DNA of 64,000 nt from Cristatella mucedo (taxonomy: Eukaryota > Bryozoa > Phylactolaemata > Cristatellidae). The stretch's first letter is position 1, and each line of letters begins with the position of its first letter. The notes below the pieces were generated by a model. That model was not told the DNA's origin, made no database searches, and saw only the letters and a list, made by a program, of their open reading frames with translations. The stretch lies in the NCBI GenBank assembly GCA_009760855.2, contig WPIO01000069.1:429001-493000 (forward strand), given 5' to 3'. This document shows, one piece after another, positions 12,576 to 61,014 of the stretch. Position numbers and translations under genes: made by a program.

Positions 12576-15500
12576 AGAGAAAGAGAGTAGACAAACATTT
12601 AGGAAGAAGATCTTCTAAGCGAAGCGATCTACGAAGCGATAAAGACCACAGTGCTGCGTATGGAGGACAAGTTTGCAGTCTTATTTAAGTGTCACTAGAA
12701 AGAATCGTGCAATGCCGTTCACAACATGCATGTCCCTGATGCCAGAAGATAATGCTCATGCAAGTACAAAGCAGTGGCCCGAAACGTGCCCAGATCGGAT
12801 GTCACATTAGCTAGCACTGTCGCCAACACCCTTTGCCCAACTCTAGCCACGGTGTGGTAGCTGTTCGTCCATCAGATCGAGTGTAAAAAACACGAGTACG
12901 CATGAGTCTAAGGCTATTGCACAAAAAATACACTTAAGACTTTCCGTAACCGAAGAAAGCTTGTGAACACAGGCCGCAGCATTGGTTAGGACCCATAGCC
13001 AAACAAAAGGCAAATCTAGACCAGGTCTGACACACGTTAAAAAATTTAGCTAGGCTCGAATAGGATTGCTATCCAGCCTGGCCGAAGCTCGATAAAGATC
13101 CGGTCAAAGGTACCAAAGTGCCGCAGTGCCCGTGCGTGGCTGTCTATTGATCGCCCGAGCCTTTACCAGCGCTAGTCTCCTGCGGAGTAGCATCAATAGC
13201 CTGCCAACCGCCGTAGCCGGGCGGAAGGTCTCGGCGTGCCATCCACGTCTCATTCCAGACGTGGAAGTTCCAAATTGAGTCGACGTTCTCTTCATCCAGT
13301 GACACACCGGTAGCTGTGAAGTGCATGTCGACGGTCATGCTGCCGTCGGTGTCGTGAGCCGATGAAAAGTTGGTGACCGACCTTACAGGAATTCCAAGGC
13401 ATCGGCATATGGTGGTAGTGACAGCCGAGAACACCCAACACTGGCCGTACTTCACCTGTCAGCAAACGTAGGTGACTACGGCGATGGGTATTACGGTACA
13501 GCAAGCTGTAGCCAAGACTGTCAACTTCTTGATCCAATCGATTGCAATCGTGTCCCATTTTTAGTACCTAGCACAGTAAAATCGATGCCTAGAAGATCGC
13601 TTAAGCGAGGGGGTTAAGTGCTCTCATTTCACCCTTTAGAGATTGTGGGCTCGAGTTCGGCAGAAGGCGAGTCGGCATTCCCTACTCGAAGCAGGAAAGA
13701 TCGTCAAGTTTTTTTAAAGGCTACATAAAAAGCTGTCGAAACCGCTACCGTCGCCTATCCTATTGCCGGAAGGTAAGCACGACACGACTTTATTGGCATT
13801 AACTAAAAGATTTATTAAATTTCTATGTCGCTTAACCTATTTGACAGGTATTAATTTTTTCATCATGAAAGAGCTCATTCTCTAGAGGATGCTGTCTTTC
13901 GAATTATTTTGATTTTATTTTATAATTTAAGCTTTTAGATCACTCCGCCAGATCGTGTTCAGCTGTCTTGGATGGAAAAATTAATTTGAAAAAACATAGA
14001 TAGTGATTTATTATACTAAAAGTGCAATATGAACGACTTATTATGATGGCTAACCTTTTGCAGAAAAAACTCTTAGCACATTAACTGACTTCTTGGCTGG
14101 CTTATTTATTTGGAGCCAGCATTATGCAAGGGCAATCTGGCTAATTGTCTTGAAGTGGGACACAACGCTCATAACTAGTTTGCCTATCAGGCAATGCTAG
14201 TACGAAAAAAAGTTCTTGGATTGGCAATCATTCTGAGATGACGTATAGCACAAGCAAAAATTGATCGAGAGAGTTCAATTCAAAAGCTCCATTAATTGAG
14301 TGACAGAAGGACCGTAGGAGCTGTCACCCTACGTGTAGATTACAATAAAGAAATGCTTGTTGCAGATAAAAAAAATCAAGATCAACATCGTGAAATTTGC
14401 CCTGTGCGAAGACCCGAGCCCGTTTTCAAGTGACAGATACATCAACGGTAACATAATTCAGGACCATAACTCAGGACCAAGCCAAGGGGGACAGAGATAT
14501 GAGCACGTTTGCCTCAGCAACGATAGCAATCGCAAAAAGTAAATGAGAGAACACTTGCACCAGGTTCAGTTCTTACCGGCTTCTTAGTTTCCAAGTACTG
14601 ACGCAAGATGGCCGTGCTGTTGATCCACTTTGTCGGTGAGGTGCCGTCCTGGTAATTTCCATCCCAGCGGCCTTCCATTAGTCCTCTCTCATCATTTGAG
14701 TTTACCTATTCGAAGAGCCAGAAAAATGCAAGTGGAAATCCTTGAAATAATAAAAAGAACTTGAAAATTCTTCAATGTAAAAGCATTGCCAGGAGGCTTT
14801 CGGGATATTTATTTTGAATTGCTGATATTTATTATCCCTTGTGCTTGCTGACATTAAGCATATTACTACTAACCAATCGATCATGCTTCCTTTACCGTAT
14901 ACGTTAAGAGCCTAGAAAGCGATTAAGTTCTCCGAATGTGATATATAAATAAATTGTTATTATCACTGGTAAACCTTAGAATACTTCTTGCTCAGCACAG
15001 TCTATGAGCTGAGCTCGACATTGCTGCACTAAGACATTTCCCTAAAACAACTCAGTGGAAATGGGTTTGCCGTCTAACTAAATCTAGCGGACCTTCGTCC
15101 CTTTAGCCCAACTGTAAAATTATCAATATTTAAGATGATCAGCAGTGCGTTTACTAGCTTTAGAATTTTTTATTGAAAGATATACTCACAAACGCTGAAA
15201 TATCGCGAACGATGCGGACGACATCGCCACGCTGCTGTACGTCGAGCCTAGATTTGTTGTCCAGAAGCCATAGCACACACTTGATAACGACATCGTCGAA
15301 CTGACCAAAAGTCCACGGTACATTGCAGATCTGCTTCTCATTGCCAGTGAACACTTTTCCGGTGTCATTTAGTATGTACTCTGTCCTCTCTTCTTCGTCA
15401 GCCATGAAAACGTCGTCATCTAAAACCAGCACACAAAGAAACTTTTACAGACAGCAAGCAATCAATAAAGTAAGGATGCACTCGTCAGCTGAGGTGGCAC

Positions 15501-18500
15501 ATCCCAGTGAACAACTTTTAAATGCAGTGCAGAGGCAGATAGACGGCAAAAATAAAGCTAGCAAGCCATGATGGCACATTAGGTAAGGGGTCTGCTTTTC
15601 ACGACATTGGTCCCGAGGTCGGGGATTCGAATCCTGCGGTGGGTGATCACTTATCGCACCTGCAAGCGGTGGTGATAGCCGTAAAGGCTCTTCTATCGCT
15701 ATGCAAAAGAGGCTGCTATATCAGCTAGCATTTTTCAATTTACCCCTGTGTCAAGACAGGGAGCCACAAAACGGCGCTATTCGTTACAGGGGCATGGCCG
15801 ATGCCTAATAATGTAGAGCTAGCACCTCAAAGTATGGATGGCGAATCTCAAATACAACATCGATATACGCATGTATGCCGCCAGTAACTGAGCACCCAGG
15901 CAGCAAAGATGGACTGTAAATTAATATAGTTAGCATGCAGTACCCTAACTCGATATAGTTAGTATGGACCATTCTACTTCACGGCCACAGAGAGCTAAAT
16001 CTTTAAATCAGCGGTCATAGTGTGCAACTCAGTTCGAATTCCAAATTGCAATTGACTAAATATTACAAATTAAGTTTCTGACAACTAAAGGCCGTTACTC
16101 CGGAACCGGTAATAATCTCAAGGGTGGTCATAACCCTGGCGATATAGCATTCCAACATTTCGCAGTGTCTTTTGGTTGATTGGTGATCATGGACTGCCAA
16201 TACAAAGCTTAGCCAGTAGGACAAGCTGCATTTATGGAGCATAGGTTTTTGCCCGTGCTCAACAGGAATATCTTATGCTAGCTAAGCGTTCCTGGTTTTA
16301 GTCGCAAGCACCGAGGCAAGCTCAAAATGACTGCTAAGAGTCACTGGCCTTTTACCCCTAACTTTCGACACCAAGTATGGAGTGCCGCTTCCACCTCTAA
16401 CAGAACGAGGCCGCAAGCCCAGCACTCATAATGGTGCTAGTCTCACCCGATGTGCAAAGAATAACGGTGACTACGTAACATTGTACCACGGATAGCAAAT
16501 AGGTCCAATACAGGTCGGTATGCCGATTGCAGGAGAAACACTGCAGTGACAAATAGTGCTTACTTTAGCATGCCAATGCCGTATCCATAATGTAGACTTC
16601 TATTTGACCGCTGCTGAGGGTAGTTGCAGACGCTGAACGGATCACATGACGTACACTAATCGCTCTGCGGTCTAGAGCTCAAATAAGCTCAAATGCCATT
16701 GGTGAGTCCGGAATCACAACTAGCTGCCTATCTCATGTCACCGGCTTTAGCCATAGGTTATCTCAAAATCAGAACCTAGCAGCTAAAATTAAGGAGCCGT
16801 GAAAATAAATAATTATCTGTGTTACAATACGGCTGATTCAGCTTGCAGCCCACCGGCCGTAATTAACATTTTTAGGGCGGATACGCCATCTAGACCTTGA
16901 TCGGGCTGAGGCAGTGGTTCTCAACCTGTGGGTCGTGATCCCTTTGGGATTCGAAGGACCCTTTCACATGGGTGGCCTAAGACCGTCGGAAAACATGAAT
17001 TTCCACATTTTGCAAACAATAGTTGTATGGTTCGGGGTCGTCGAAACATGAGGAACTGTGTTAAAGGGTTTCGACATTAGGAAGATTAAGAAACACATCA
17101 GACTCTAAATTAATAGGAAGTGAGCAGTCGTGCAGCCTTTCCCATCTCCAGCGGTCGCGATCCTTGAGCAGATATGCTCCCTCAAAAATGCATTTCCATA
17201 ATTAAAACTGCTGAGTGGCTTGCAGAATTGGCTTCTATTAAGACAACGTTTCCGAAAAAAGTAATAATCATTAATAATTACCGGTACCGCTTATAGTGTG
17301 CTAGGTACATCTTTTTGGTAGGAGCTAGGTCATCAAGAGGATGCTGAGATTGTGAGAACGAACCACTTTAGAGGTTATCGAAGAGAGAGTGCCTAATGAA
17401 CTTAGTTGGGCGCCAAGCTAGGCAGGAAGTGATGCGGATTGACGAAATGATTAGGCTGAATGCAGAGATCCTCGTGCGGATTGCCATTGATTGTAACACT
17501 AGTTATACATCGCCTGTTTAACCGGTGTTTAGATTGGATTTTCAAATGTTCGTGCATACTCAATGCCGTTGGGATCCAGGAAGGCTTTCACCTCCGCCTC
17601 GAGGGTAGACAGACTCGGAACTCATGTGCTAAGGGATCTTCACGGACTGCATATTACATTTAAGCATCCCAGCGGCACCCCGTAGAAATAAACTGAAATT
17701 TTGTGCACCAAACATTGACCAGCCGCATTGCCTGCTTTGCCTTGCTAAAGATATTTTATAAATCCTAGACAGCCGGAAGAATTCGGATTCAGTTAGCTAC
17801 CCTGAAGCCTTCCTATTAGTACATCACAGCCCCACTTAAAACCAACGTCGAAAGTGGTCATGCTGATGTTGCGAATCTTCTGCAGCATTTTCTTAAGTAT
17901 AGTCTAATAAGAAAGTGGGACCCCGTGGAAAAGCAGCTTAAAGCTACGATCCGATTGCTTTCTGCCATTCGCAGGTTGAGCTACTCAACAGATCTGCTAG
18001 CTGCTAGCTGCGAGCTTGGTGGCGACCCGAGCAGGGGTTACCCGTGTTCATAGTAGATGGGGAAATAATCTGGCACAATCCGATTTCCTGGCAGCATAAA
18101 AATGGCTCGACTCTTGGGGGGCCATATTTGTGGGGTAAGGGCCCGAGTGTAACCAGTCACCCTCAAACGAACACGACGCACAGCATATACAGCGAGCAAT
18201 CAAACAGCCGATCTTAGGCTGCAAATCAGCCCTCCTCTCTGGATGAGTACGAAACCGAGTGAGAGATACGCTGCCAGTATTTAAGAGGCACACTTACCTT
18301 TGCACCATGGGTTGAAGATCATTGTGATTGTCTTGGCGGGTAGAAAGCGCGACACCGCTTTCTCGGTCACCTGCTTGGCACCGGGTGTCGTGGTCTCGAC
18401 ATAAATTGCCCATCTGCCGACCTGAGCAGTAGCAGGGCTGCAAACAGCCAATTCGATCTTGTTTCCATTTACTCGGGCTATCTTGACGTGCCATTGTCCC

Positions 18501-21500
18501 TTGGGACCATCGACGGAGGATGCTTCTACCACGACTGCCGTTCCTTTGCTGATTAAAGGTTTGCTACCTGCGAATAGATTCATGGACGCAGGGAAATTTA
18601 GCAGGGAAATTAATAAGCACGTACAGTACTTACATGCTGTACATGCACATTCAGTACATGCACGTACGTCTAGCTAGCACTAGTTGTGTTGATGATGTTT
18701 TGACTAACGAGTGCATATAAAGAAGAGGGAAATATAAAATATTAAGTTGATGAAGAAAAAAGCGGAACGTCATGCTCCGTCCACACACCCAGCATGAAAA
18801 GCTTTCCAGACATGGCAAGAAATGCACACTAATGATGGTGCAATTGGTTAGTTGGAGACTTTCTATCCACAAGATTGATCATAGAAATTTCGTTACTTAT
18901 GCTTTTGCATAATACTACTAGCTAGTAAGCTTGTGATACCAGGTGATATTTTGAGCTAGAAATCCAGCAGATTGGACTCATTTTGGGACAACTCCTAATC
19001 AATTTCAGGGGCAAATTAGAATCGAGATCTTTTTTATCACCGTCTCTATCGATCGCAACATATCTAGAAACAAAAATATAACATACAACCACAAGGACTT
19101 AGCAGTCGTTACACTGGTGAGTTTTCTAAAGCACAATATTAACCAAAGCCTGAGCGGCTTTTGGCGATCGTTTAGTAGCAAAGAGACTTCATTTCTTGCA
19201 ACGCAGAGAAGTGAGAAGTCGAGATGACCCACATTTGGTGGGTCTTTATTATGCTTCCTTTACGTGCATGTATCTGCTTTCACTATGTCTGCTGCTTTCG
19301 GATGCTGCCACCAAACATTTGGTAATGCTTTCTATGCAGCATCTGTAAAGTGCCTAGAGACAGATTGAGTTCTCTGAGGGCGCTATACAAGTGTAATACT
19401 ATCATTATTATTATTATATTTTATATTAGGGTAGTCGAGGAAGTAATTAACATGGGGGTGGCAGCTCAAGGCGGATGGACAGGATTTGCCACATTCGGCA
19501 GCAGGTCAGAAGATGTCACTGTGTGTGATTTTCAGAAGTGAGGTCCACAGTCTGGAACCTGCAGACGAAAAGGTTATATTGCATATGGTCTGTAAGCATA
19601 GGAATGCAACAGCTAATTTATTATCTTACTTCTGCGGATAATAGTTGATCTCTTACGTTCCTATCTGAGAGTCCCGGGAGATTGAAACTAGTGAGTAGTC
19701 CAGTTAGATATAAATGAGCAAAGCCATAACGGGCTTTGCTGGTCAGAGCATGAATTTACATCCGTGTCCATTTATCTACCGGAAGCCATTGTAGCTCATT
19801 CAGCAAAGAAAACATATGGTTGACCTGTTCAAGTTTTCGACTGACCTCGCAGCCATATCTTAGTGGCTTTATTTGGCAGCCTAGCCAATAAAACGAAATT
19901 AAGTAGTCCAGTCTATAAAAAAAACTAGGGAGCTAGTACAGATTTATTGTTAGCCGCCGCTGTAGACAGTCCCAATTCTCAAAAGAGAATCGAAGAATGA
20001 CCATCTATGGGAGCCTTCTTTTCACAGAATTTTACAATCTTTTGTTGGCTATCATAGAGAACCAAATTCCGAGCATATAACATTGGTCTCACAAAAACTG
20101 TACCAGCCAGCTGAGCCGGGTTTCCTAGCCCAGGCATACGTTTGTCGTGTACCAGGCGTGGAGGATCGGCTCTGTCGTGATTTAGTTTTGGAAAATTGAT
20201 GACATCCGTGCTCGAACATCTGCAGGGCTAGAATTGTGTTTATCTGTCGCTGCCAATTGTTTTTGATGGCTTATATGACAAATAAGTTAATGTGTGCTCA
20301 ACATTGAATCGATAGTTGATCCCGGGGCCCGAGTTTCCGAGTAGCTCGGTATAATTTAAGGAATTCAAAGTACTGAGACCAGACCCCCATTTCAAATCAA
20401 CAGGTGACCAGTCTCTTGGGTAAAACTTGACCATCCCACATGGGACTCGGATTGAACACGATCGAATAAGTATGATTTGAGCTCCGCTTGAGGCTATGTG
20501 CCAGAACAATCGTCTCTTCGATAGTTCTGGTAGGATATTGTGATACGTAGTGTAAAAGGCAGCTAGCTGATGGATAAAGAGGATCGAGGCCAGTCACGTT
20601 AACGTCATCGTTGCTGCTCTAGATGTCACTGGTCACACGTAGAAGAACAGTTTAAATTAACCAGCGTCGTTTGAATTTTGGCTGAAACGTTTGTGGAAAT
20701 TCATTCTGGTCAAGTCTTTGTACAAGCTGCTTAGCGATACTCTCGGGATTCTTAGTCAAAAAAAGATTATGGGATACTGACCGCATTGGATGTAAGAAAT
20801 CAATCCAGGCTTACGGAAAACTGTGGCAGATTTGAAGAGGTTTGGAACAAACACGTCGTCCACAGAACCAAATAAAATTAAAGCGAGAGTTAAATCCAGA
20901 CTATGTTTTTCTACTCATTCAAAACAAAATTCAACCAGCCACCGAAATAGAAGTGACGAAGGCAAGACTATGTTTTTCTACTCATTCAAAACAAAATTCA
21001 ACCAGCCACCGAAATAGAAGTGACGAAGGCAATCTTTTCTCTTAATTTTAAAAGAAAAGATATTTATTTTCCTCCTGCATGTCACTCAAACAGTGATTTC
21101 TGGTCGATCTATCGGCAAGGTAATTATATTCTTTATTCAGTTTACTCAGCATCCTTTCCGATATTAGAAAACGCCCGGAGAGCTCCACACAAGTAATTCA
21201 ATGTTTTTCATCTAAGGCCTACGATATAATAATAATATTAATTCTAATAATACACTTGATAAAGCGCCCTCGGAGAACTCAATCTCTTTCTAGGCGCTTT
21301 TCATTCGCTGCAAAGGAAACATGATCGAATGGTATGTGGTACCGTCCTTGATAAGCAACATGAGTAACATAATTAGAGGTGACATGCATAGTGTCGACAT
21401 GCACACGGTCAGCTTGCAGTGGTGGTTAGTGGCAGCATGCACAGTGTCAGCACACCTAAGCACATAAAGAACGTATCACAGGGACCCACTAAATGATGTC

Positions 21501-23647
21501 ATACATAGGAGCGTTTTTAGTGTCTTTTTGATAAGGGTCAAGTCAGGGGAAGTCGTGATGCAAGTCGGGAGTGAGTTCCAGGCTTTGGGAGCATACGAAC
21601 TAAATGTAAGTCTCCAAAGAATTTAAGGTTTTTACGAGGGATAAGTAAACAGTTAGATTCTGAAAAGCGAGTAGTACGATGCTTAGCCTGGTAGGAGAGT
21701 AGAAATGATAGATAGGCTGGAGCCAACGAATAAAGAGACCTGAAAGTCAGTGATCAAAACCTTGAAGTCGATCCGTTGCTTCACTGCTAGCCAGTGCAGG
21801 TCGGCGAAAAGGGGTGTGATGTGGCAACTGCGACGCTTACGACAGACAAGCCTAGCTGCAGAGTTTTGCACAAGATGTTGGCGCCTGATTGCATAAGCCG
21901 TTATATCAACAAGCACTGAGTTACAGATGTCAAGACCGAATGTCAGAAATGCATGGACCAAATTAGGAGTGGTATTCCTACCTTAGGTAGCCCGTATTTC
22001 CGCAATGTTTTATGTAGCTGAAAGTAGTACGACTTGATTGTGGAGCTGATGTGGTCGTCTAATGAAAGGTCACTTTGGGACATGACACATAGATTTCGTT
22101 CAGATTCAGCAGGAAATATGCTGGCAGAGCCGATTTCGAGCGTTGGCCTTTACACTTTCTGAATCACGCTTGGTTTGCCCATAACTAGCGAGTTAGTTTT
22201 ATCATCATTTAATTTAAGAAAATTTGCTGGCATCCATGTGGGGATGTCTTCAATACATGCAGCAAAAGGGTTGAGAGAAGCCGACGTGCTCGAGGGCTGG
22301 GAGGGATCAAAGCAAAGGTATAACTGAGTGTCATCCGCATAGAAGTGAAAGCCTAGATTGTGATTGGCCATCACATCGGCAAGAGGGGAAGTATAAACCG
22401 TGAAAATAACCGAACCAACAAAGGAGCCCTGAAGTATCCCATATTTTAGATGTACTTTCGGATGATCTTTTTCATTCACATAAATACTCTGGAGTCTCCC
22501 ACTGAGATAAGACCTGAATCATTGCAGAGCAGTGCCAGTGATATAGAATCTCTGTTTCTCTTATAAAGTTACGAGGTTAGTATGGAGCTCGAGACAATAG
22601 CTATCTGAATGCCTGACTTATTGTCCGTGTCCATAAATATACTTTCAACAGCAATGCCCACCTCCTACCAGTTCGTTGCAGCCTCTGCTTCTTCCAAGTG
22701 CATTATCCACTGTGATATTGGTTTTGAAACTGTGAGCGACGTGACTGAGAGAAAGAGCGAAAAGCAGCATTGCAGCGGCCCAGTGAAGTAATCTTTATTA
22801 CATACGGTACTTTCAGTGCTTAAATGCGCATTATTCATAGCATGCTGAGATCATGGATACTAGCAGCAGTAAGTGGCTTCTTTTGTGTTCGATGTTTCAT
22901 GTTTGTGTAGGCATTACGCTTAAATGCTTGTGCATACTTTCTTAAGCATGGAGATTTCTGATCACTAACTCTCGGTTATTGCCCCTCATGGAAATTTTTT
23001 TTAAACGCCTGAATTAAGAAAGAATTCTCTTAGGTGCTACACGAAACTAAAGAATAGTGCGATTAATGCTATTACTTCACGTAAATTGCCTCTGAAATTC
23101 AGAATCCAATCGTTGAGAAAGTAAACAGTTTTTATGATATCAAAAGGCAGCAGACTTCAAGATTAGAGACCACTCTCGGAGTTTTACTCATGTGAGGCAG
23201 TGCAACAGACTACAGCTGTGTCTAAGGTGGACAGTGGGGTCAATTATAGTGAGCGGACAAGAGTGAACGAGGCTAGAATGTATACAGTGACCGAGTAGTA
23301 ATAGTCAGCGGCGATAGGCAATGACGTGAAGCACAGACGAACTCGTGGAGCCAATCCACTCGATGCTACTCGAGTTATTGCTCAGACATTGAGCAACTAC
23401 GGAAATAGCTGAAAGTGTCGGCAACAGAAGCAAAGCTCCGAATCACATGCGAAGAATGTTTACCTATTTCGAATCCAAGCCGCAGGCCATCTACGCCCGC
23501 ATTATATTCTCGGTCAAATGCTATTTCCAGAGAGAATTCTTGCCCTCGTCTGACCAAGAGTTCCGCGTCGGTGGCTTTCTGTGTTATTTCGTCCTTGTGC
23601 GGCATAGTCACCTCAAATTTACTAGTGTAATGTTGCACAGCGTTCTG
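1914..23647 (-). CDS. Transglutaminase gene (ten coding exons located, both ends incomplete)
   Basis: Encodes a calcium-dependent protein-glutamine gamma-glutamyltransferase, which cross-links glutamine to lysine side chains; in invertebrates this acts in haemolymph clotting, cuticle or matrix formation. Coding exons on the minus strand: 23464-23647, 18298-18567, 15190-15419, 14577-14705, 13167-13455, 10387-10546, 5977-6080, 3021-3100, about 2502-2666 and 1914-2074. Phases agree at every join except that between the last two, which is not settled. Together they give about 590 residues of a usual 690-760. Seen directly: N-terminal beta-sandwich (VRRGQ, FNPWCK), catalytic Cys in YGQCWVF, His in NFHVWNE, Asp in [10 protein letters not shown], the calcium-site residues in VNADR and PEGSWEER, ISTKA, and the first barrel (VYYTG, LVDQ). 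The last barrel is missing and should lie left of base 1. The N-terminal exon(s) before 23647 were not found. Isoform (annulin, haemocyte or other) cannot be decided. Confidence 0.95.
2502..2666 (-). CDS. Transglutaminase exon 'I': start of first C-terminal barrel (edges approximate)
   Basis: It reads [36 protein letters not shown] and [17 protein letters not shown]. This is the classic '(F.V...KN.S...RT......C....YTGV)' first barrel. The start is placed at the CCGTTGCAG acceptor, which keeps phase 0 from exon H; another in-frame AG would start at 2696. The 3' edge is uncertain: GTGCGA after IIKF is the only nearby GT that keeps most of the homology, and it needs a shifted acceptor in exon J. 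Confidence 0.85.
3021..3100 (-). CDS. Transglutaminase exon 'H': EGSWEER segment
   Basis: An 80-bp exon. Its first two bases complete the Gly of exon G, giving [17 protein letters not shown] and then [10 protein letters not shown], ending at a GTGAGT donor in phase 0. The two Glu residues around 'EGS.EER' are calcium ligands in family members. The acceptor (CAATTTAG) has a weak pyrimidine tract, but frame and content agree. Confidence 0.85.
3101..4497. other. Intron sequence, no gene seen
   Basis: Transglutaminase intron between exons H and G, up to the LINE-B copy. AT-rich, with no recognisable repeat or exon. Confidence 0.5.
4498..4800 (-). mobile_element. LINE-B 3' end
   Basis: Minus-strand copy. 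It contains the 3' UTR blocks also found at 37.6 and 41.1 kb (AAGCGGCTTTCGGTACGCAT, GACTTCGTCTCACGCAAC) and, further up, the reverse complement of the LINE C-terminal coding end. Confidence 0.75.
4924..5219. mobile_element. Possible solo LTR
   Basis: A 296-bp unit starting TGTGTGAGCC and ending AACTCAACA, flanked by CTGC on both sides (4920-4923 and 5220-5223). Inside are a TATA-like CTTATATG, then GGGGAATAAAG about 20 bases later and a GT-rich stretch, in LTR order. There is no primer-binding site, gag-pol or second LTR. Confidence 0.4.
5224..5976. other. Intron sequence, no gene seen
   Basis: A GC-richer block at 5.22-5.52 kb, then AT-rich sequence up to exon G. Nothing recognised. Confidence 0.45.
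5977..6080 (-). CDS. Transglutaminase exon 'G': ISTKA / YKYPEG segment
   Basis: A short 104-bp exon. The acceptor is TATCTGCTGCAG, and its first base completes a Val codon from exon F. It reads [18 protein letters not shown], then [17 protein letters not shown], and ends with one base of the Gly codon at GTATGT. 'ISTKAVG...R.D.T..YKYPEGS' is a strong family signature. The phases (2 in, 1 out) fit both neighbours exactly. Confidence 0.93.
6446..6500 (-). mobile_element. LINE-B 3' tail fragment
   Basis: A short minus-strand piece, GTATCTCCGCCTGTAACCTC plus AAAGCCAAAAAGACTA, matching the start of the LINE-B tail at 35.3 kb. Confidence 0.5.
6660..8036. other. Intron with simple repeats, no exon seen
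   Basis: It holds a 13-G run (7031-7043) and a TC/CTGT microsatellite (about 7438-7495). Open frames here show no family signature. Confidence 0.5.
8037..8088. repeat. Tandem pair of 26-bp palindromes
   Basis: Two adjacent units (8037-8062, 8063-8088), 25 of 26 bases alike. Each is a dyad with 10-base arms CTATATCGAG / CTCGATATAG and a 6-base loop. The pair can fold as two hairpins or one long one. Confidence 0.9.
8115..8180 (+). mobile_element. tRNA-like head of a third SINE (or tRNA relic)
   Basis: TAGCTCAATCGGTTGGAGC is a near-perfect polymerase III box A. A degraded box-B region (GGTTGCGGCATCGTTCGCC) follows at tRNA spacing. No acceptor stem pairs, so it is not a working tRNA. Confidence 0.5.
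8190..9833. other. Intron, no gene seen
   Basis: AT-rich intron between transglutaminase exons F and G. Nothing recognisable. Confidence 0.45.
9834..9966 (-). mobile_element. SINE-2 (tRNA-derived)
   Basis: Minus strand: GTGGTGATAGCCGTTAAGGC and CTACATAAATGAGGCTGTTA, ending CTAACCTTTTTTA. It is shared with 15.6 and 24.5 kb. The tail differs from SINE-1. Confidence 0.7.
10387..10546 (-). CDS. Transglutaminase exon 'F': end of core, calcium site
   Basis: It follows a TTTCCTTTTCAG acceptor. The phase 1 join gives [18 protein letters not shown], then [21 protein letters not shown] and [12 protein letters not shown]. It leaves in phase 2 at GTAAGT. 'CGPASV.AIK.G....[11 protein letters not shown]' is diagnostic; the Asn and Asp of VNAD correspond to the factor XIII calcium ligands (family knowledge). 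Confidence 0.95.
10600..10691 (-). mobile_element. SINE-1 fragment
   Basis: A minus-strand piece around GGGCTCGAGCCCCGAGGCAT, with the start of the LINE-A-like tail on its left. Confidence 0.65.
11225..11334 (+). mobile_element. SINE-1 fragment plus AT microsatellite
   Basis: Box B region GTGGGCTCGAGCCC, a diverged tail TGCTCTCTTAAGCGCTATAC, then a TA run (11309-11334). Confidence 0.65.
11335..12506. other. Intron, no gene seen
   Basis: The only structure is a directly repeated TACGTCGGATGTAAGTA (12058-12093). It is intron between exons E and F. Confidence 0.45.
12507..12587. repeat. GA microsatellite
   Basis: About 30 GA units turning to GAAAGA at the end. Confidence 0.95.
13167..13455 (-). 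CDS. Transglutaminase exon 'E': active site (Cys, His, Asp)
   Basis: A 289-bp exon carrying the whole catalytic triad. The Cys of [12 protein letters not shown] is at 13438-13440. The His of [13 protein letters not shown] is at 13261-13263. The Asp of [12 protein letters not shown] is at 13192-13194. Between them are the conserved [20 protein letters not shown] and DLPPGYGGW blocks. The exon opens after CTGACAG in phase 0 and closes at GTAAAG in phase 1. All three catalytic residues and the Trp of QCW are present, so the enzyme should be active rather than a band-4.2-like dead paralogue. Confidence 0.97.
13600..13670 (+). mobile_element. Possible degraded tRNA-derived SINE head
   Basis: GCTTAAGCGAGGGGGTTAAG then GTGGGCTCGAGTTCG, at box A / box B spacing and similar to the SINE-1 head. 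The tail is missing. Confidence 0.35.
14577..14705 (-). CDS. Transglutaminase exon 'D': pre-catalytic segment
   Basis: A 129-bp exon, phase 0 on both sides. It begins [18 protein letters not shown], then [18 protein letters not shown] and ends ETKKP at GTAAGA. The family motif 'NSND.GVL.G.W...Y..G..P..W..S..IL' is preserved. It joins directly to the active-site exon, giving [12 protein letters not shown]. Confidence 0.95.
14903..14965 (+). mobile_element. LINE-A 3' tail only
   Basis: AAGAGCCTAGAAAGCGATTA plus AGTTCTCCGAATGTGATATA. A diverged tail in the intron between exons C and D. Confidence 0.6.
15190..15419 (-). CDS. Transglutaminase exon 'C': linker into catalytic core
   Basis: It starts after GGTTTTAG with AT, completing an Asp codon, so the joined protein reads [21 protein letters not shown]. 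It continues [28 protein letters not shown] and [14 protein letters not shown], ending at a GTGAGT donor in phase 0. The 'W(N/T)FGQF' and 'RGD...VSR' blocks match the family (here RGD...VRD). The match to transglutaminase is clear over the whole exon. Confidence 0.95.
15561..15745 (+). mobile_element. SINE-2 (tRNA-derived), best copy
   Basis: Box A (ATGGCACATTAGGTAAGG), box B (GGGGATTCGAATCCTGCGG), then CAAGCGGTGGTGATAGCCGT and AGGCTGCTATATCAGCTAG. It starts just downstream of exon C's intron side. Confidence 0.75.
15746..16911. other. Intron, no gene seen
   Basis: Between exons B and C. No repeat family or exon recognised before the SPIN-like element. Confidence 0.45.
16912..17098 (+). mobile_element. 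SPIN/Charlie-like hAT miniature element, copy 1
   Basis: It opens with CAGTGGTTCTCAACCTGTGG and closes with a degraded inverted copy (AAGATTAAGAAACACAT). Inside are GGGTCGTGATCCCTTTGGG, CCCTTTCACATGGGTGG, CCTAAGACCGTCGGAAAACA and CATGAGGAACTGTGTTAAA. This layout is the non-autonomous SPIN-type hAT element known from mammals, reptiles and some invertebrates (established knowledge, recalled by eye). There is no transposase and no clear 8-bp target duplication. Confidence 0.75.
17099..18297. other. Intron, no gene seen
   Basis: Intron sequence between the SPIN-like element and exon B. Nothing recognised. Confidence 0.45.
18298..18567 (-). CDS. Transglutaminase exon 'B': rest of N-terminal beta-sandwich
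   Basis: The acceptor ends CTATTCGCAG and the first two bases complete the Gly left by exon A, giving [16 protein letters not shown]. It reads on through QWHVKIARV and [20 protein letters not shown] to TMIFNPWCK. It ends with one base of a codon at a perfect GTAAGT donor. The 'SPA..PVG.Y....ET' and 'FNPWC' strings are classical for this family. Length is 270 bp, and phase 1 in and phase 1 out fit both neighbours. Confidence 0.95.
19095..19690 (-). mobile_element. LINE-B copy split by a LINE-A2 insertion
   Basis: The 19095-19215 and 19427-19690 parts match consecutive pieces of the LINE-B copy at 35.27-35.64 kb: the AGCGGCTT..GGCGATCG and AACGCAGAGAAG blocks, then GAGGAAGTAATTAACATGGG. A plus-strand LINE-A2 lies between them. 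Confidence 0.6.
19225..19425 (+). mobile_element. LINE-A2 3' UTR and tail, nested
   Basis: GCTGCCACCAAACATTTGGT, TATGCAGCATCTGTAAAGTG, GAGGGCGCTATACAAGTG, then ATT units. The same 3' UTR is at 52.6 and 61.6 kb, which defines a subfamily distinct from LINE-A. Confidence 0.65.
19700..20897. other. Intron, no gene seen
   Basis: Between exons A and B. No supported feature. Confidence 0.4.
20898..21031. repeat. Perfect 67-bp tandem duplication
   Basis: Two identical adjacent 67-bp units (20898-20964, 20965-21031), beginning AGACTATGTTTTTCTACTC. No differences were seen. Confidence 0.95.
21222..22545 (-). mobile_element. LINE-A copy with reverse transcriptase remnant
   Basis: A CR1-like non-LTR retrotransposon on the minus strand. 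From 5' to 3' it has the RT core ([33 protein letters not shown], then [14 protein letters not shown], 22150-22479), the C-terminal end ([20 protein letters not shown], 21683-21961), the 3' UTR, the tail and ATT units. The catalytic YADD is intact but the frame is broken several times. It sits in the transglutaminase intron. Confidence 0.9.
22546..23463. other. Intron, no gene seen
   Basis: Between the LINE-A copy and exon A. Nothing recognised. Confidence 0.4.
23464..23647 (-). CDS. Transglutaminase exon 'A': start of N-terminal beta-sandwich
   Basis: Reading on the minus strand, the exon follows a TTTTTAATCCAG acceptor and begins [13 protein letters not shown]. It continues to [15 protein letters not shown] and ends LRLGFEI plus one base of a Gly codon at a GTAAAC donor (phase 1). 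The 'HHT/HYT then VRRGQ' pattern is the hallmark of the transglutaminase N-terminal domain. There is an in-frame stop just upstream in the intron, so the start codon must be in an earlier exon. The acceptor could also be three bases later. Confidence 0.9.
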
Positions 23648-23800
23648 CTGGATTAAAAAGTCGACAGCAGAGACGTCCAGTGGAGCTGCTACCCCAAGTC
23701 GAACATCTAGAATGTATAATATATACGTTCGATCCAGTCAAGTCAAACCGGCTCGCAGCTGAACCAGCGAAGATCAGTGTTCGGGAGCTGCATGGGAGCA

Positions 23801-26439: not shown

Positions 26440-27217
26440 TTCCAAAGTGACCTCTCGTTAGACGACCATATCAGCTCCACAGTCAAATCTACCTATTTTC
26501 AGCTTCATAACATAGCTAAAATTTGGACTTGTTTAGATAAGGATACCACGTCTAAGTTGGGCTTATCAGGCGATTGCAGCTGGCGCACAACTCCGCAGCT
26601 AGGCTTGTCTGTCGTGAGCGTCGCAGTTGCCACATTACACCACTTCTCGCCGACCTGCACTGGCTACCTGTCAAGCAACGGATTGCCTTCAAGGTTTTGT
26701 CGCTCACTTTTAGGTCACTTCATTCTTTGGCTCCAGCCTATATCTCAGATCTACTCCCCCACCAGGCCATGCATCGTACCACCCGCTTTTCGGAATCCAA
26801 CAGTCTACCAATACCTCGTACAAACCTCAAATCCTTTGGAGACCGTGCATTTAGTTCGTATGCTCCCAAAGCCTGGAACTCCCTCCCGACCTGCGTCAGA
26901 ACATCCCCTGACCTGGAAACATTTAAAAAGAACTAAAAAACACCTATTTAGGACAGCATTTAGTGGGTCCCCGTGATTCATCCTTGATGTGCTTATGCGT
27001 GCTGATACTGTGCATGCTGCTACTAACCAAATTTGCATGCTGACCCTGTGCATGTCACCCCTAACCATGTTATTCATTTTGTTTGTTTATCAAGCATGAT
27101 ATTACTCACCATTCAATTGCATTTCACTTTGCGGCAAATCTAAAGTCCGTAGAGAGAGATTGAGTTCTCTGAGGGCGCTTTATCAAGTGAATTATTATTA
27201 TTATACATATTATTATT
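26440..27217 (+). mobile_element. LINE-A copy, ORF end and 3' UTR
   Basis: It opens with [20 protein letters not shown], then [60 protein letters not shown] and the end ...LFRTAFSGSP, followed by the 3' UTR, tail and ATT units. Well preserved, with one frame change near 26.57 kb. Confidence 0.9.
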
Positions 27218-27499
27218 AAGCTGTCGCTTGCAACGAAGAGAAACTGAGAAGCCTTTATCGATTAGCAGATAAATTGAACTAGTAAATAAGTTAGATGTAG
27301 CATACAGAAAAATTAGAGAAGTGACAGAAGGGACTTTTAGTGAGTCATTGGTTGCCAAAAATTGTCATTTCACGAAACACAGGGACATTCGTCATGGTAC
27401 AAATATACTTTTTTTGGGTAAAATGTGTGCGTAAAGGGGAATCTATCGATGCACTGCAATATCTTTCTCTCTGTCTCTCTTCGGGCGCTATACAAATTA

Positions 27500-29500: not shown

Positions 29501-31017
29501 TTTTCTTTTAGACAACTGCAGAAAGTTGATTATGTTTAGGCTCCGTACTCGAGCCAATATGAAAGCATGTGCGTGACCTCCGACCGAAACTTTAATTTCT
29601 CTTGCTTCTAGAAGCTAACGGAAATGCTCAGCTCCTGACAGAATAAAATCTATCAGAGAGGGCCATCTGGTATTCAGATAAGTACGCCATATGTGCTAAG
29701 GTCTCGGCTCGTGAATTGGCAAAGTGAAGATTCAATGTGCCGTAATATCTTTTTAATTCTGAACTGTAGCGCTGGAAGTCAAAACAAAGTTTAAAGGGAG
29801 TATTTCTTTTAATGCTCCGACTGTTTCTCGACGCAGAGTAAAACCAGTGATAAAACGCCAACGAGGAGTGTTCTAGCAGGGTGAGTACTTGCAGGGCAGA
29901 GGAAGTCGCACGGAGGGCAATTCCTAGGAGCTGAGTCCACCATCTGCCTTTCTTGCCCTACTCGTGCCTTATTTTGACGATCGTGAAAGGCTTCCTAGTG
30001 CACACACCCTGTCGCTAGGGATTTAGAGTGAGCGCGTCTCAAGCAAAACAATGGAAGGACAATGGCCTTGCGGCGAACCGTGGACACAGTAGAAGCCTTA
30101 CCTCGACCAAGCACCTCAAAGCAGCAAACAGTGAGATCCGAGATTCAACGGCGCCAGCCAGCCAGATTCGTTCACGCTGGCGTGGCACCGAGGCCACTCG
30201 GGGACGTATGGCGAGAGCTGAGCCCTAGCCGCCATGTGGGCAAGTGTCATTCCAGAAAATGCTATTGCAGCCCAAACTTGCACTGAAGGCAAATGCAGAG
30301 TGAGATAATTCAAAGAGTACGCGGGCTTATAACGGTCACGGGTATCTATGTTGAAGTCCAGAATGTTTAACCAGCGGCCACCTTTGGACTAGGCCGACCG
30401 CGGACGAAAGTTCGCGACACCGAGGGCAGGAGAAAGCCAATTCGCCGATAAGCGACTAATTACAGTTTTCATGTCAAGCATTTGCTGACTTCCTAGCGTG
30501 GGGTGAACCTCGCGAAAGCCCGACTGCCTCCGGTGCCAAAGGATCAGCTTTGATTTTTGAAATCAGCGTGAAATATCTCACGTTTATCTAAAGTGAGAAT
30601 TTATGCCACAGGTAAGTGCTGCTAAAGTGCCGAAGCTAAAGCGGGCGTATTTAAGATGTCAAGATCAGCTGACCGCTCATGACTGCAGCCAACGGTCGCT
30701 GAGCGATGGCAACTTTTGCCTCGCCCTTTACAGCAATGGCTATGGACCAGACTATAAAACACTGCAAGCAAAGATGCAAATTTAAAGCAATGCCAATGAA
30801 AGGCATAGCAAAATGGTTAACGGCATGTCGGGGTAAGGCGCGAAAACAGCACGAAACGTCAGATGGATATCGTAGTGGTAGAAAAATTGGTAAGACTAGG
30901 CAGGCTAGACTAGCCAGACTAATCCAGACTAGCGTCGTCACGAGCACTTTGATGTTTCACAGGCGTTTAGCGTCTTCAGCGTGTTTCACTCATGACCTAA
31001 GTAGCACGTCCAATTCA
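29501..31017. other. No supported gene; GC-richer block at 30.0-30.5 kb
   Basis: The 30.0-30.5 kb stretch is richer in CpG than its flanks, and both strands are open for about 65 codons, but nothing is recognised. Confidence 0.4.
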
Positions 31018-31690
31018 ATAATAATAATAATAATAATATTGCACTTGATAAAGCGCCCTCAGAGAACTTAATCTCTTTCTAGGCGCTTTACATTTGCTGC
31101 AAAGTGATACGCAATAGAATAGTAAGTAAAATCATGCTTGAAAAACAAACAAAATGAATAACATGGTTAGGGGTTACATGCACTGGGTCAGCATGCAAAT
31201 GTGGTTAGTGGCAGCATGAACAGTGTCAGCACGCATAAGCACATCGAGGACGAATCACAAAGACCCACTAAATGCTGTCCTAAATAGGTATGTTTTTAAG
31301 TTTCTTTTAAATGTGGTCAGGTCAGGGGATGTTCTGATGCAGGTCGGGAGGGAGTTCCAGGCTGTGGGAGCATACGAGCTAAATGCACGGTCTCCAAAGG
31401 ATTTAAGGTTTGTACGAGGTATTTCTAGACTGTTGGATTCCGAAAAGCGAGTGGTACGATGCTTTGCCTGATGGGGTAGTATATCTGAAAGATAAGCTGG
31501 AGCCATAGAATGAAGAGACCTAAAAGTGAGCGACAAAACCTTGAAGTCAATCCGTTGCTTGACAGGTAACCAGTGCAGGTCGGCGAGAAGTGGAGTAATG
31601 TGGCAACTGCGACGCTCACGACAGACAAGCCTAGCTGCAGAGTTTTGCACCAGCTGCAATCGCCTGATTCAATAGGGCAGATAATTCTAC
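31018..31690 (-). mobile_element. LINE-A copy, well preserved ORF end
   Basis: One continuous 134-codon frame on the minus strand (31255-31659): [60 protein letters not shown], ...KTYLFRTAFSGSL and stop. The 3' UTR, tail and AAT units follow. It is 5'-truncated and among the youngest copies. Confidence 0.92.
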
Positions 31691-32379
31691 TCGACAGCTA
31701 TGGAGGATTGCAAGCAACTAACAGAAGCCATGACATACGCCAACTGTAGCATGACCCAGCGGTCAAGAGCACAACTCAGCCAAACTGGCAAGTTTACAAC
31801 TGATTGCTATTGACATAGCTTCATATTTTGCTATGCGATGGTGGTAGATTACGGGATAGTTGTTGCAAATAATGAACTCAAATAACGAATATCAGTTATA
31901 TTTTAAATGGCTTAGCAAGCTGCCGTTTCACTAACGCCTCCTTAAATTAAAGCCGCCCTCAGTCGCAATAATATACAACCTAGCACATCCAGTTACGCTA
32001 TGTGCCATTGATCGGCTTCATCACCTCGTAAGACTCCAACATTAATTACTAACGAGAAATAATCAGAAGCGGCATTTGAGAATGCGGCTATAGCTATATT
32101 TGCAAGTTTTAATATTTTTCTAGTATTTACCAGCTGTATGTAGTCTCCATATTCATTACTGAGATCCCCACAAATTTAAGCTTTATTGGATTTTTAGAAG
32201 CCTCTTCTTTCTAGACGTTCAGGACGTCAGAACTTCACATTACTGGAAACAGGCGATTGCTTTTTAGCTGCTGCCCTATCTTAGCAGTTATTTGAAAGGA
32301 TCGCAATCTAAAACGAGATTAGTACACACAGTGCAGAGAGGATCACACCTCCCAGCATTGTAGCACGAGCAATTATCAC
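31691..32379. other. No gene seen
   Basis: Intergenic or intronic sequence between two LINE-A copies. Nothing recognised. Confidence 0.4.
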
Positions 32380-33000
32380 TTTAATAATAATAATGATAAT
32401 AAATTTGATAAAGCACCCTCACAGAACTCAATCTCTCTTTAGTCGATTGACAATTGCTGTAAAAGAAGCACGATCGAATGTTTAGTGGTAGCATGCTCAA
32501 TAAACTACCGGAATAATGTCGTTAGGGGTGACATGCACAGGGTCAGCATGCAAGTGGTGGTTAGTGACAACATGCACACTTTCAGCAGAAATAAGCGCCT
32601 AGAGGACGAATCGCAGGGCTACACTAAAAGCTTTCTTTATAAATCTGGACAAGTCAGATGTCGTGACGGAAGTGGGGAGTGAGTTTTAGGCTTTGGGAGC
32701 ATACGAACTAAATGCACGGTCTCCAAAGGATTTGAGGTTTGTACGAGGTATTGGTAGACTGTTGGATTCCGAAAGATGGTGGCACGATGCTTAGCCTGGT
32801 GGGGGAGTAGATCTGAGAGATAGGCTGGAGCCAAAGAATGAAGTGACCTAAAAGTGAGCGACAAAACCTTGAAGTCAACCCGTTGCTTGACCGGTAGCCA
32901 GTGCAGGTCGGCGAGAAGTGGTGTGATGTGGCAACTGCGACGCTCACGACAGACAAGCCTAGATGAGGAGTTTTGCACCAGCTGTAATCGCCTGATTGCA
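32380..33000 (-). mobile_element. LINE-A copy
   Basis: Same structure as the 31-kb copy, with frame breaks near 32.7-32.77 kb. It reads [20 protein letters not shown] on the minus strand. Confidence 0.9.
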
Positions 33001-33464
33001 AATTTTGATAAATTTGACGTTCAGTTGGGTTTTAAGTACTCATTACTGGCATCGAAATACATATCGAGTCTTGTCTGCCTTTATTACTCGCACCAGGAGG
33101 ACTATCCTTTGCGTCATGAATGAACATTTCTGGATTAATCCATGATAAAATACCGATACCCATAGCCTCTTAAGGCACACAATAGGCTAACTTTCCAGAT
33201 TTCCACTCAGCTCTCGGCTGTGCATTCGCAGCTCCTGTCTTCTTCAGGTATGAGTAATAAAGTGAGATAGCCTGTAAAAACAGAGGTGATTAGACCGACG
33301 AGCTAAGAATCTACGTAACAGGTGGAGTAGCCGATCATCATCACAGGATGCAAGCCTCTATCTGATACAAAAAGAGTAGTTAGGTCCACTTCGTTTCACA
33401 AATTCTATTCTCATTCTTGCTGACGTAGCTGCCGAGCTGTCAGCACTCACACTTTGCGTTTGAC

Positions 33465-33860: not shown

Positions 33861-34221
33861 ACTACATTCCCTGAATTGATGACTTTCAAGCAAGTAGTAA
33901 CAGCTCACCTTTCCTCCCAGTACTTTTCGGGTTTCTGGGAATTGACATTTGTGCGCTCATGCGAGCTGGCGCAGTGCAGGTAATCGCTAGCCACACCGTA
34001 TCGCTAGCTATACCGTGATCGTAAATCCTGAACGCCCCAAGGCCCACTTTGCCAGAGCACTTTGGGTGCTCATCGTCGCTGCAGCCAGCACTTTTACTTT
34101 TCAGATGACGCCACGTCAGTAACACTAAATTTTCTGAGTCAGCTTCGCACTGTCCCTGAGCTGCCGCGTTGCGCCCGTCGGGCTGTACCGAGTATCGGCT
34201 AAGCTACGCTAATTGATAATA

Positions 34222-34342
34222 ATGGAATTCACTCGTTTAACGCCCAATGAGAAAGTAATCTCCATTCGGGCGCTTTACATATGCCACGGGTCTCGAGCCC
34301 GCGACCGCGGCCAGACCTTGGGGTCGGGTGGGCAACTTAATC
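34222..34342 (-). mobile_element. SINE-1 copy
   Basis: Minus strand with GCGGGCTCGAGACCCGTGGC and AAAGCGCCCGAATGGAGAT. It lies just downstream of the candidate first exon. Confidence 0.75.
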
Positions 34343-34679
34343 AATTCTTTATGTTAAGCTGCTTTTAACTTTTTACGTGAATCTACTCACTTGGATATGC
34401 CGCTGTAGAAAGAAATGGAGTTGACAGCGAGCCACGACGTTAACGCGCCACACCTTGGGGGCGAAGCAGCGAGCGATGGTAGGGAAAACGCCATGACCCG
34501 GGCACTGGGTCAGTACACGAGGCACAGTCAGTGGCCCTATGAGGTGGTCGCTGCTCGAGAGGCTGCATTCCGGCACGGGCTGGCTCGGCCGCACCTCCGC
34601 CCGCCAATCCGGAACTGCAGCCGCACCTCGCAGACCCGTCCGCCGCGGATGTGAGTCAACGTCGGCGATCCCCACTTAC

Positions 34680-34833
34680 TCGGATTCCTCTCGGAGACGG
34701 GCGTGCCGTCGGGCAGCGTGCCGTACACTTTGTAGTAGCAGCCGGTCTCGGCGAGCGGGCTCAGCCATCGGTGTGCCGCAGCCGTCGACGGTCGCTCTCC
34801 CGTCGAACGTCTGCTCGCCAGTCTGGTTGACAT
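34680..34833 (-). CDS. Candidate first coding exon in CpG island, gene unknown
   Basis: An ATG at 34831-34833 (minus strand) opens MSTRLASRRSTGERPS, passes AHRWLSPLAETGCYYKVYG and TLPDGTPVSERNP, and meets a perfect GTAAGT donor at 34679-34674 in phase 1. It lies at the inner edge of a CpG-rich block, as first exons often do. I recognise no domain. The nearest downstream gene on this strand is the transglutaminase, but exon A begins in phase 0, so at least one more exon would be needed between them. Confidence 0.45.
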
Positions 34834-35271
34834 GGCGGGCGCCTCAGCGAGCGCCCCTAAGCTTCCTGGAACGCAGCGGGCGTGCTCGCGACACTCACGC
34901 CGGAGGCGGGGCGGGGCGGGACGGGGGGGGGGGGCGATTGCAGTTTAGGCGGAACAGATCGTTCGGCTCGGGCTTTCGCCAAGACGCTCAATGCAAGCTG
35001 GCGGCGGCGACGTGTTTTCCAGCGGGAACTGTTCGCCCGATGACGCTGCCGCAGCAGTCGTCCCGTCGCATCGTCGTAATGATGAGAGCCGCCGCTAGCA
35101 CGTGTCCGCTGGCTTCTCGCGCGTCGGCCACAGACTCGATGAGATATTCGCGGATCGAAGCGAATCTGCCAGCGAGCGAAGCGCGATCGGCCGCGGACGA
35201 ATCTGCGGAAGCGTCTGCTAAATCCTGCTCTGCCGCGGGATTGACTTCGAAAATGAACTAGGGCGAGGAAG

Positions 35272-58433: not shown

Positions 58434-58611
58434 CAGCAATTCTCAAAATTTGGGTCGTGACCCCTTTGGGGTCAAACGACTCTTTCACAGGAGTCACCTA
58501 AGACCACAGGAGAAAACACGCATTTCCACATTTTGCACTCAATATTGTGGGGGTCACCACAATATGAGGAACTGTATTATAGGGTCACGGCAGGAAGGTT
58601 GCGAACCACTG
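58434..58611 (+). mobile_element. SPIN/Charlie-like hAT miniature element, copy 2
   Basis: The same element as at 16.9 kb and in the same orientation. It has GGGTCGTGACCCCTTTGGGG, CCTAAGACCACAGGAG, CACAATATGAGGAACTGTA and the end GGTTGCGAACCACTG. The flanks CTCTACAG and CTATACGG agree at 6 of 8 bases, as a decayed 8-bp hAT target duplication would. About 178 bp, non-coding. Confidence 0.78.
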
Positions 58612-61014
58612 CTATACGGGGTCTTGTCTGTAATTAAAGGATTGGCTATAAGAATACACAACCTCAATGCAAATTTCATTTACTTCCTATGTATTAACGT
58701 TAACATCTCCCTCTGGACCGCATTTTGCTTCACTCACTTGCATTTGCCTACTTCTACGTCCTGGCTGTTACAGAGTCCTCTATAACCATTAATACCACAG
58801 TTCGACTGATTGTTCTCCACTTCAAATAACTGAAATGCTTGTTCTGATGCAGGCTTTAGTTTGGATACTATAAAGTAAGGAGCCCGCTTCTTGCTTATGT
58901 AGCCATCTTATTGACACCGAATTATGTGTGTCTTACCTAAACAACTATAGATGGGCTCAGTTTTCCCTCCAGGCTCAGTGCCCTCCACACTGTTGTGCAC
59001 TCAGCTAAGCATGCTTGTCTGCGTGGTATTAATAAGGGCATTCTACTGTGTAGTTCTAAGTGTATTTTTGCGGGCTTAGGCACGCTTGTCGATTTATACT
59101 ACTTGGGCGATGGTGCACGCCTGTCAAAGCTCTTAACATCGCTTGATGTTACCTCACAGTCATTATTTCTCGTGGAGCGAGTTGTAATAACCCGTTATGG
59201 GGATTCAGCTCTCTTTTTATAAAAGAAACCGTATTGGTACTATATTTTAAACGTTTTATAATATCGTAAGAGAACTTGATCTCTATCTCTAGGTGCTTTC
59301 TATATGCTGCCAATGTAGCACGAGGAGTATCGGAGACGACTAAGAAAGTATATAAATAATGGATGTATTGACGACCAGAAATAAGAAGATTCATATTAAT
59401 ATAGCGTATATTCCAGGGCATTGGGTAGCTTTAAGCCTCACTTGAAATGTTTTTGAGTCGGGGGCTGTAAGTGAGGTGGTGGCCACGCCCGCAATGCTGT
59501 TCCGCCCCTAGCCGGGCTCACAGCACTCCACCCGGCCAACTGGCGCTCTGAGTACCACCTCATTAGGAGCTGCAGTTGGACACTGCCGGCTAATCTGGAT
59601 TTAATTAAAACGGATCACTTGCGGTCGTGTGACCCGTTAGTCCTGCAGTGAGGAACTTTCTGCACGTCCACCGGCCTGTGTGGACGCTATTTTCTCTCAT
59701 GCCCTTTCTCTTCTCCCCGCGTTCCGGAGCTACTTCCACGACGGCTACATCAGTATGTAGTTACTACATCAGTGTGTAGGAAATCACGCTTGCTTTGCCT
59801 GGGTATGATGCAATACAGCCATCGTCGTCAACACCACAACTCACTTGTGGGAGCAACTTGTGTGGGTTCATCTTCGTCACGCCGCCATCGCGTGCGTGAG
59901 CCCCTACATAAACACGTCGGTGGGAAGAAGGTTACAGACTTCATGAACTTACAAACTAGAGGCACACTCTGCGCTGGATTTGAGATTTTTCAGAGATACA
60001 ACTAAATAATTAATGTCATAAGAGTGACGCACACTTGCCTCGTCAGATTGAGAAGTAAAGGAGAAGTTGGCCAAGTAAGTCGTGGTGTTGGAGGCTCCCG
60101 GTCTCGCCGAGTTATGCACCTGGATTCGTGCAGGCGTGCTCCGGCGATGCTGCCACGCACGCAAGGGAACGAGTACCCAAGGCCCGAGCGGAGCTAGATA
60201 GCTCGCTCTTTGTTGAGACTTGTATATTTCGCGTTCCCCGAGTAGCGTGTTCGTAACCCCCTCCAGTGTGTTGGCGTCTTTCGGTGGAAGCTCACGACTG
60301 CGGTAGTTGTCGACTCGGACTAGCCAAGCAGTTACTCAGCCAGCCGGGTTTTATTTGGCGTAGGCTCGTACTGTTGGATTCGGAGTCGGTACAACGACAG
60401 GACTGCGGAAGCCGACTGACCAACTGACACGTCTGTTAGCGCTTGCTGCGTCGTCTTGTGCCCCTATAGTGTGCTTTTTTTAGGATCCTCCCTGTAGACT
60501 TGTTTAGTTCCCCTGTTGTTGTTGGCGCATGCGTTATTATAAAGAGGTTTACCCTGACGGCCGCTCGTCTTACTCTAACTCGGCGGCATGGCGAGCGACA
60601 GCTTGGTCGGAGTATGGCTGGGTTTGGCGGGAATTAGCCTCTGACCCCTGAAGCGCGGTTACACAGGTATAGCTACGTGGTTTTTTCCGTAAAATGTAAA
60701 GCCAAATTTTACGCGACGGCCTAATCTGCGAAAGGGATAGTATACATTGGGAGAAAGTGAACCGAGCACAGATTGCTGGGTTAACCATTACTTAGAAGGC
60801 TACTTCGTTGACTGCTGCAGGTTAACCTTGCAGCACTGAAGTCTCAAATTCAGTCAAGTCCTAGAAATTTGAAGTGCAGTGCTAGCGATGCCCAGTCAAA
60901 ATAGAAATCAAACAAGAAAGTCTTAACGATCGACACTATCGAATACGGCTTCAATATTGGCAGAACAAGCTGGAAGACGTGATTATGGTAAAAAGTCAAT
61001 TGATCGCGATGGCC
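58612..61014. other. No supported gene; CpG-rich patch at 59.5-60.6 kb
   Basis: A decayed minus-strand LINE-A tail at 59264-59320. The 59.5-60.6 kb part is clearly GC-richer and could be a promoter or 5' exon region of the Ig gene, but no exon could be fixed. Confidence 0.4.

What the first reader, a model, noticed from the sequence alone, without database searches (positions are those of the whole stretch)
16912..17098. SPIN-like hAT miniature element in an invertebrate-looking genome
The ends, the GGGTCG..CCC palindromic blocks and the 'CATGAGGAACTG' segment look like the Space Invaders (SPIN) non-autonomous hAT elements, known for horizontal transfer between vertebrates, a triatomine bug and a pond snail. 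Finding it inside a transglutaminase intron offers a dated marker of transfer. Seen: the motifs. Known: the SPIN history. Inferred: membership in SPIN rather than another Charlie-like hAT.
Basis: partly seen in the sequence, partly recalled or inferred. Interest (0 to 1): 0.75.

Follow-up and report, generated by a model that had tools for sequence, protein, structure and literature searches.

The report
SPIN-type miniature hAT transposon copy
An old, worn copy of a small non-coding 'jumping gene' that looks like the SPIN type lies in an intron of a transglutaminase gene, one of very many in this animal genome; such elements are known for jumping between species, so this is a further example rather than a new kind.

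Summary
16912-17098 is a 187-bp miniature inverted-repeat element, 86.5% identical to a consensus of 28 genomic copies, lying between transglutaminase exons. A second copy, not in the finding, is at 58434-58611 and keeps a 6-of-8 target duplication. The family is abundant: 205 exact and 1,528 near matches to one of its 23-mers in the 572-Mb genome, none to the reversed control. Its anatomy is hAT of the Buster clade: 16-bp ends CAGYGGTTCTCAACCT and 8-bp nnnTAnnn duplications. Its ends match a mouse-type SPIN element that I recalled from memory at 83/85 and 79/81 bases; the middle differs. No SPIN record was available, so SPIN membership is strongly suggested, not proven. No autonomous SPIN was found; two other hAT families were, with different ends, but most candidates were not examined. 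The burst looks old (best scored copies 96% identical to consensus). One intronic copy dates nothing by itself. The host stayed unidentified. Verdict: a dead member of a known kind; more interesting if the host lineage is new for SPIN.

The parts
16912..17098 (+). SPIN-type non-autonomous hAT copy of the finding (187-bp family; consensus match covers 16912-17096)
   Evidence: 86.5% to the 28-copy consensus, 222 bits; genome-wide family
16912..16927 (+). 5' terminal inverted repeat, CAGTGGTTCTCAACCT
   Evidence: Matches the consensus end; the 3' end of this copy is worn
16930..16935 (+). Subterminal GGGTCG, one of 2 kept of 7 in the consensus
   Evidence: role as transposase-binding site is inferred
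17035..17040 (+). Subterminal GGGTCG, the other one kept
58434..58611 (+). Second copy of the same family, not in the finding
   Evidence: 82.5% over 189 columns, 187 bits
58426..58433 (+). Left 8-bp target duplication of the second copy, CTCTACAG
   Evidence: 6 of 8 against the right one, TA in the centre
58612..58619 (+). Right 8-bp target duplication of the second copy, CTATACGG
18281..18673 (-). Transglutaminase ORF upstream of the intron (stop to stop; holds part of Transglut_N)
   Evidence: E 3.9e-10
13147..13458 (-). Transglutaminase catalytic-region ORF (YGQCWVF) downstream of the element on the minus strand
   Evidence: 18 distinct PDB sequences matched, best E 1.3e-36

Best explanation
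It is one dead copy of a SPIN-type non-autonomous hAT element. The family is a 187-bp non-coding derivative that keeps the terminal inverted repeats and subterminal GGGTCG repeats. A Buster-clade (SPIN) transposase acting in trans cut it out and pasted it into nnnTAnnn sites, leaving 8-bp duplications, and the family rose to roughly 1,800 copies. No source transposase was recognised here and the copies have been decaying. This copy sits in a transglutaminase intron and probably does nothing. Shown: repeat family, ends, target duplications, copy counts, decay, intron placement. Inferred: SPIN transposase as the driver, GGGTCG as its binding sites, arrival by horizontal transfer.
For: Consensus of 28 copies with 16-bp inverted ends, 15 of 16 matching. 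Target duplications: mean 5.5 of 8 matches against 3.58 in re-pairings (maximum 4.36 of 2,000), T at position 4 in 22 and 23 of 28 and A at position 5 in 24 and 24 of 28 flanks; nnnTAnnn is reported for TcBuster, and SPIN is placed in the Buster family (PMC3499496, passages). GGGTCG 7 times in the consensus against a mean of 0.096 in 5,000 shuffles. Ends 83/85 and 79/81 identical to a recalled mouse-type SPIN. 205 exact and 1,528 near 23-mer places, control 0.
Against: The SPIN reference was recalled, not fetched, and I had seen the consensus before typing it. The middle of the element differs from it. No autonomous SPIN was found. The copy of the finding has no convincing target duplication left. 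A 200-kb sample held no copy.
Confidence: 0.8

Rival explanations
1. A different Buster/Charlie-type hAT family, vertically inherited in this lineage, that shares terminal and subterminal motifs with SPIN without being SPIN.
For: Buster-type transposase relatives are present (75 scored of 1,033 candidates, 30-40% identity to a recalled probe); the SPIN comparison rests on recall.
Against: The Buster family sampled at 4 of those 75 places ends in GCAAAAAGGTTGGACACCCCTG and has no significant match to the consensus (best E 1.8). About 160 bases of near-identity at the two ends is more than shared hAT motifs would give, if the recalled sequence is right.
Confidence: 0.15
2. The element was mobilised by another resident hAT, such as the recently active family with TAGGGCTGTACCGGATTTG ends.
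For: That family is abundant and young: 63 strong PF05699 rows; in 20 fetched loci, 19 align to the twentieth at 99.0-99.8%.
Against: Its ends differ (7 loci printed) and the consensus matched none of the 20 loci (loci reach about 1.5 kb each side of the domain). Scored copies of the miniature family are all 4% or more from the consensus, unlike the young family.
Confidence: 0.03
3. The intronic copy has been taken over for a host function, such as regulation of the transglutaminase gene.
For: Only its position in an intron.
Against: It is the most diverged of the 28 aligned copies (14.4% against 3.2-9.1%, though those were selected by similarity) and keeps 2 of 7 GGGTCG sites.
Confidence: 0.02

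Closest known systems
SPIN (SPACE INVADERS) non-autonomous hAT elements
   Same: Ends 83/85 and 79/81 identical to a mouse-type SPIN recalled from memory; hAT ends, 8-bp duplications, many short copies. SPIN in Rhodnius prolixus: PMC11614815, passages.
   Different: Central part differs from the recalled element; not compared with any database SPIN record.
SPIN-related hAT of the snail Biomphalaria glabrata
   Same: About 1,000 copies with significant identity to SPIN, no intact transposase detected (PMC5440852, passages); here roughly 1,800 copies and no source found.
TcBuster (hAT, Buster family)
   Same: 8-bp nnnTAnnn duplications; same family as SPIN (PMC3499496, passages).
   Different: Autonomous insect element; its ends were not compared here by any search.
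Resident Buster-type family of this genome with ...AAAAAGGTTGGACACCCCTG ends
   Same: Buster-type transposase relatives.
   Different: Different ends in 4 of 4 sampled flanks.

Membership tests
hAT superfamily, Buster clade | 8-bp target duplications with central TA (nnnTAnnn) | tested here: met
   28 copies: mean 5.5 of 8 against 3.58 re-paired; TA preferred. The finding's own copy: 3 of 8
hAT superfamily, Buster clade | Short terminal inverted repeats beginning CAG | tested here: met
   15 of 16 bases; that CAG is typical is recalled
SPIN | High identity of terminal and subterminal sequence to SPIN consensus elements | tested here: inconclusive
   83/85 and 79/81 against a recalled sequence only; no record held
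SPIN | Identity to SPIN higher than to other hAT families | tested here: inconclusive
   No significant match to two other hAT families of this genome; other Charlie-like families not held
SPIN | Related autonomous element with SPIN-clade transposase and the same ends | tested here: inconclusive
   Not found; 20 loci of PF05699 and 4 flanks of 75 Buster-type matches examined
SPIN | Multiple copies in the same genome | tested here: met
   205 exact and 1,528 near 23-mer places, control 0
SPIN | Patchy distribution with cross-species identity above that expected from vertical descent | not testable with these tools
   No other animal genome held; no match in viral, prokaryotic, plasmid and phage collections, where none is expected

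The most novel reading that the evidence does not exclude
A SPIN invasion of an animal lineage from which it has not been described, leaving roughly 1,800 copies of a lineage-specific 187-bp derivative. This would extend the SPIN transfer network, and the GGGTCG arrays would be testable transposase-binding sites.
Probability: 0.3. Interest if true: 0.55.

Novelty: new member of a known kind. Interest (0 to 1): 0.33.

Why it matters
SPIN elements are a well-known case of horizontal transposon transfer across phyla. A well-populated SPIN-type family in another invertebrate-like genome would add a point to that network, and its spectrum of copy divergence could date the burst once the host and its neutral rate are known. 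The copy in the finding is not special within its family.

Tried and rejected
Considered and rejected: chance motif match (222 bits against at most 30.1 in 50 resampled windows); a single-copy curiosity; the young TAGGGCTG-ended hAT as source; the sampled Buster family as source; the one intron copy as a date.

Led nowhere: exact-pattern scans of viral and prokaryotic collections and blastn of plasmids and phages (no match); searches of papers for sequence strings of the element (0 papers); the four primary papers that I asked for are not held. A 200-kb sample of 20 stretches held 0 copies. Host: COX1 was located on contig C688 with 11 in-frame TGA, but its letters could not be taken; mollusc haemocyanin and arthropod cuticle domains gave 0 matches, with the tool's warning that no control rang, so they exclude nothing; a test for a vertebrate immunoglobulin domain (PF07654) did not complete. 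A search with the recalled SPIN sequence did not complete.

Full report
Observation. A search of the genome in which the window lies (572,011,866 bases, 688 contigs) gave 1,713 first-look candidates; 40 were scored and listed, the copy itself and 39 others at 83-87% identity. I took 28 of those 40 places, aligned them and made a 187-bp consensus. The window copy is 86.5% identical to it over 185 bp (222 bits); a second window copy at 58434-58611 is 82.5% identical over 189 columns (187 bits). The best score in 50 windows resampled by a first-order chain was 30.1 bits. A plain repeat search of 16700-17300 found no inverted pair, as the 3' end of this copy is worn.

Anatomy. The consensus has 16-bp terminal inverted repeats, CAGYGGTTCTCAACCT, 15 of 16 bases matching between the ends. 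The two 8-bp flanks agree at 5.5 of 8 on average, against 3.58 when flanks are re-paired among copies (2,000 re-pairings, maximum 4.36). Three of 28 copies have identical flanks and 18 of 28 match at 6 or more; position 4 is T in 22 and 23 of 28 and position 5 is A in 24 and 24 of 28. This is the nnnTAnnn pattern reported for TcBuster, and the same paper puts SPIN in the Buster family (PMC3499496, passages seen). The copy of the finding has no convincing duplication left (3 of 8); the second copy has CTCTACAG / CTATACGG. The hexamer GGGTCG occurs 7 times in the consensus in both orientations, against a mean of 0.096 (maximum 2) in 5,000 shuffles and 0.028 per 187 bp in the sampled genome; the window copy keeps 2 and the second copy 1. 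I infer, but have not shown, that these are subterminal transposase-binding sites.

Abundance and age. The 23-mer ACATGAGGAACTGTATTAAAGGG, which holds no CpG, occurs exactly 205 times, and 1,528 places lie within 3 mismatches; the reversed control gave 0 in both searches. Under one uniform divergence this fits about 9% and about 1,790 copies; real copies vary, so this is a rough figure. With the consensus as query, 40 of 2,336 candidates were scored and the best were 96% identical, so no very young copy showed. In the 28-copy set the mean divergence was 6.5%, the window copy 14.4% and the others 3.2-9.1%; that set was picked by similarity to the window copy and is biased. A 200-kb sample (20 stretches at round coordinates on contigs already seen to hold copies) held no copy, so two copies in one 64-kb window is above the average density.

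Place. Minus-strand ORFs with transglutaminase domains lie on both sides: Transglut_N at 23375-23737 and 18281-18673, the catalytic YGQCWVF region at 13147-13458 (18 distinct PDB sequences matched), and a Transglut_C match just under its cut-off at 2460-2828. The element therefore sits in an intron; I did not define splice sites.

Is it SPIN? No SPIN record is held: the four primary papers that I asked for were not available, and sequence strings of the element were found in no paper. I compared the consensus with a mouse-type SPIN element recalled from memory: 83 of 85 bases at the 5' end and 79 of 81 at the 3' end agree by my count on the printed alignment, while the middle differs. This is a good lead, not a database test, and I had already seen the consensus. 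Passages in PMC11614815 report SPIN in Rhodnius, PMC4344730 cites hAT transfers involving Lymnaea, and PMC5440852 reports about 1,000 copies of a SPIN-related hAT in Biomphalaria. A SPIN-type family in an invertebrate is thus a known phenomenon.

Source enzyme. PF05699 gave 138 matches among 150 scored of 766 candidates; 63 rows score 69 bits or more. Of the 20 fetched loci, 19 align to the twentieth (L060) at 99.0-99.8%; the ends read TAGGGCTGTACCGGATTTG in the 7 loci printed, and the miniature consensus matched none of the 20. This is another, recently active hAT. A recalled Buster-type transposase probe gave 75 scored matches of 1,033 candidates at 30-40% identity; 64 of 75 hold at least one in-frame stop by my count. 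The 3' flanks of 4 of these 75 all belong to one family ending GCAAAAAGGTTGGACACCCCTG, with no significant match to the miniature consensus (best E 1.8). The SPIN source was not found, and most candidates were not examined.

Host. CpG observed/expected is 0.89 in the window and 0.52-1.10 in the 20 sampled stretches, which to me speaks for an invertebrate. COX1 on contig C688 has 11 in-frame TGA codons, as animal mitochondria do. Searches for mollusc haemocyanin and arthropod cuticle domains gave 0 matches, but the tool warns that no control rang. I cannot name the host, so I cannot say whether SPIN is already reported in it.

Verdict. The finding is real and its family assignment is probably right, but it is a new member of a known kind, and the intronic copy is neither a date nor evidence of a donor.

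Noticed in passing
58434-58611: A second, full-length copy of the same miniature family with a 6-of-8 target duplication, not in the finding.
   Followed up: yes
L049-L068 (for example L060 from base 1062): A different, very young hAT family with ends TAGGGCTGTACCGGATTTG; fetched copies are 99.0-99.8% identical to L060 and several have open frames of 635-642 codons.
   Followed up: partly
L069-L072: A decayed Buster-type hAT family whose 3' end reads GCAAAAAGGTTGGACACCCCTG in 4 of 4 flanks.
   Followed up: partly
26565-27220, 31003-31672, 32375-33003, 38155-39278, 39744-40331 and others: Many related fragments of one interspersed repeat, also common in the sampled genome; neighbouring ORFs look like a LINE reverse transcriptase (RVT_1 just under cut-off at 22150-22518) and some copies end in an ATT run.
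   Followed up: no
20898-21032: A perfect tandem duplication of 67 bp.
   Followed up: no
53786-54190, minus strand: An ORF with a CD80-like C2-set immunoglobulin domain (PF08205, E 2.8e-6).
   Followed up: no
34000-38000: A G+C-rich stretch with CpG observed/expected 1.19 and 1.36 in its first two 2-kb bins, possibly a promoter region.
   Followed up: no
G000:C166:4375626-4376390: A COX1 match of 267 codons in a nuclear-sized contig, with 6 in-frame TGA, probably mitochondrial DNA in the nucleus.
   Followed up: no
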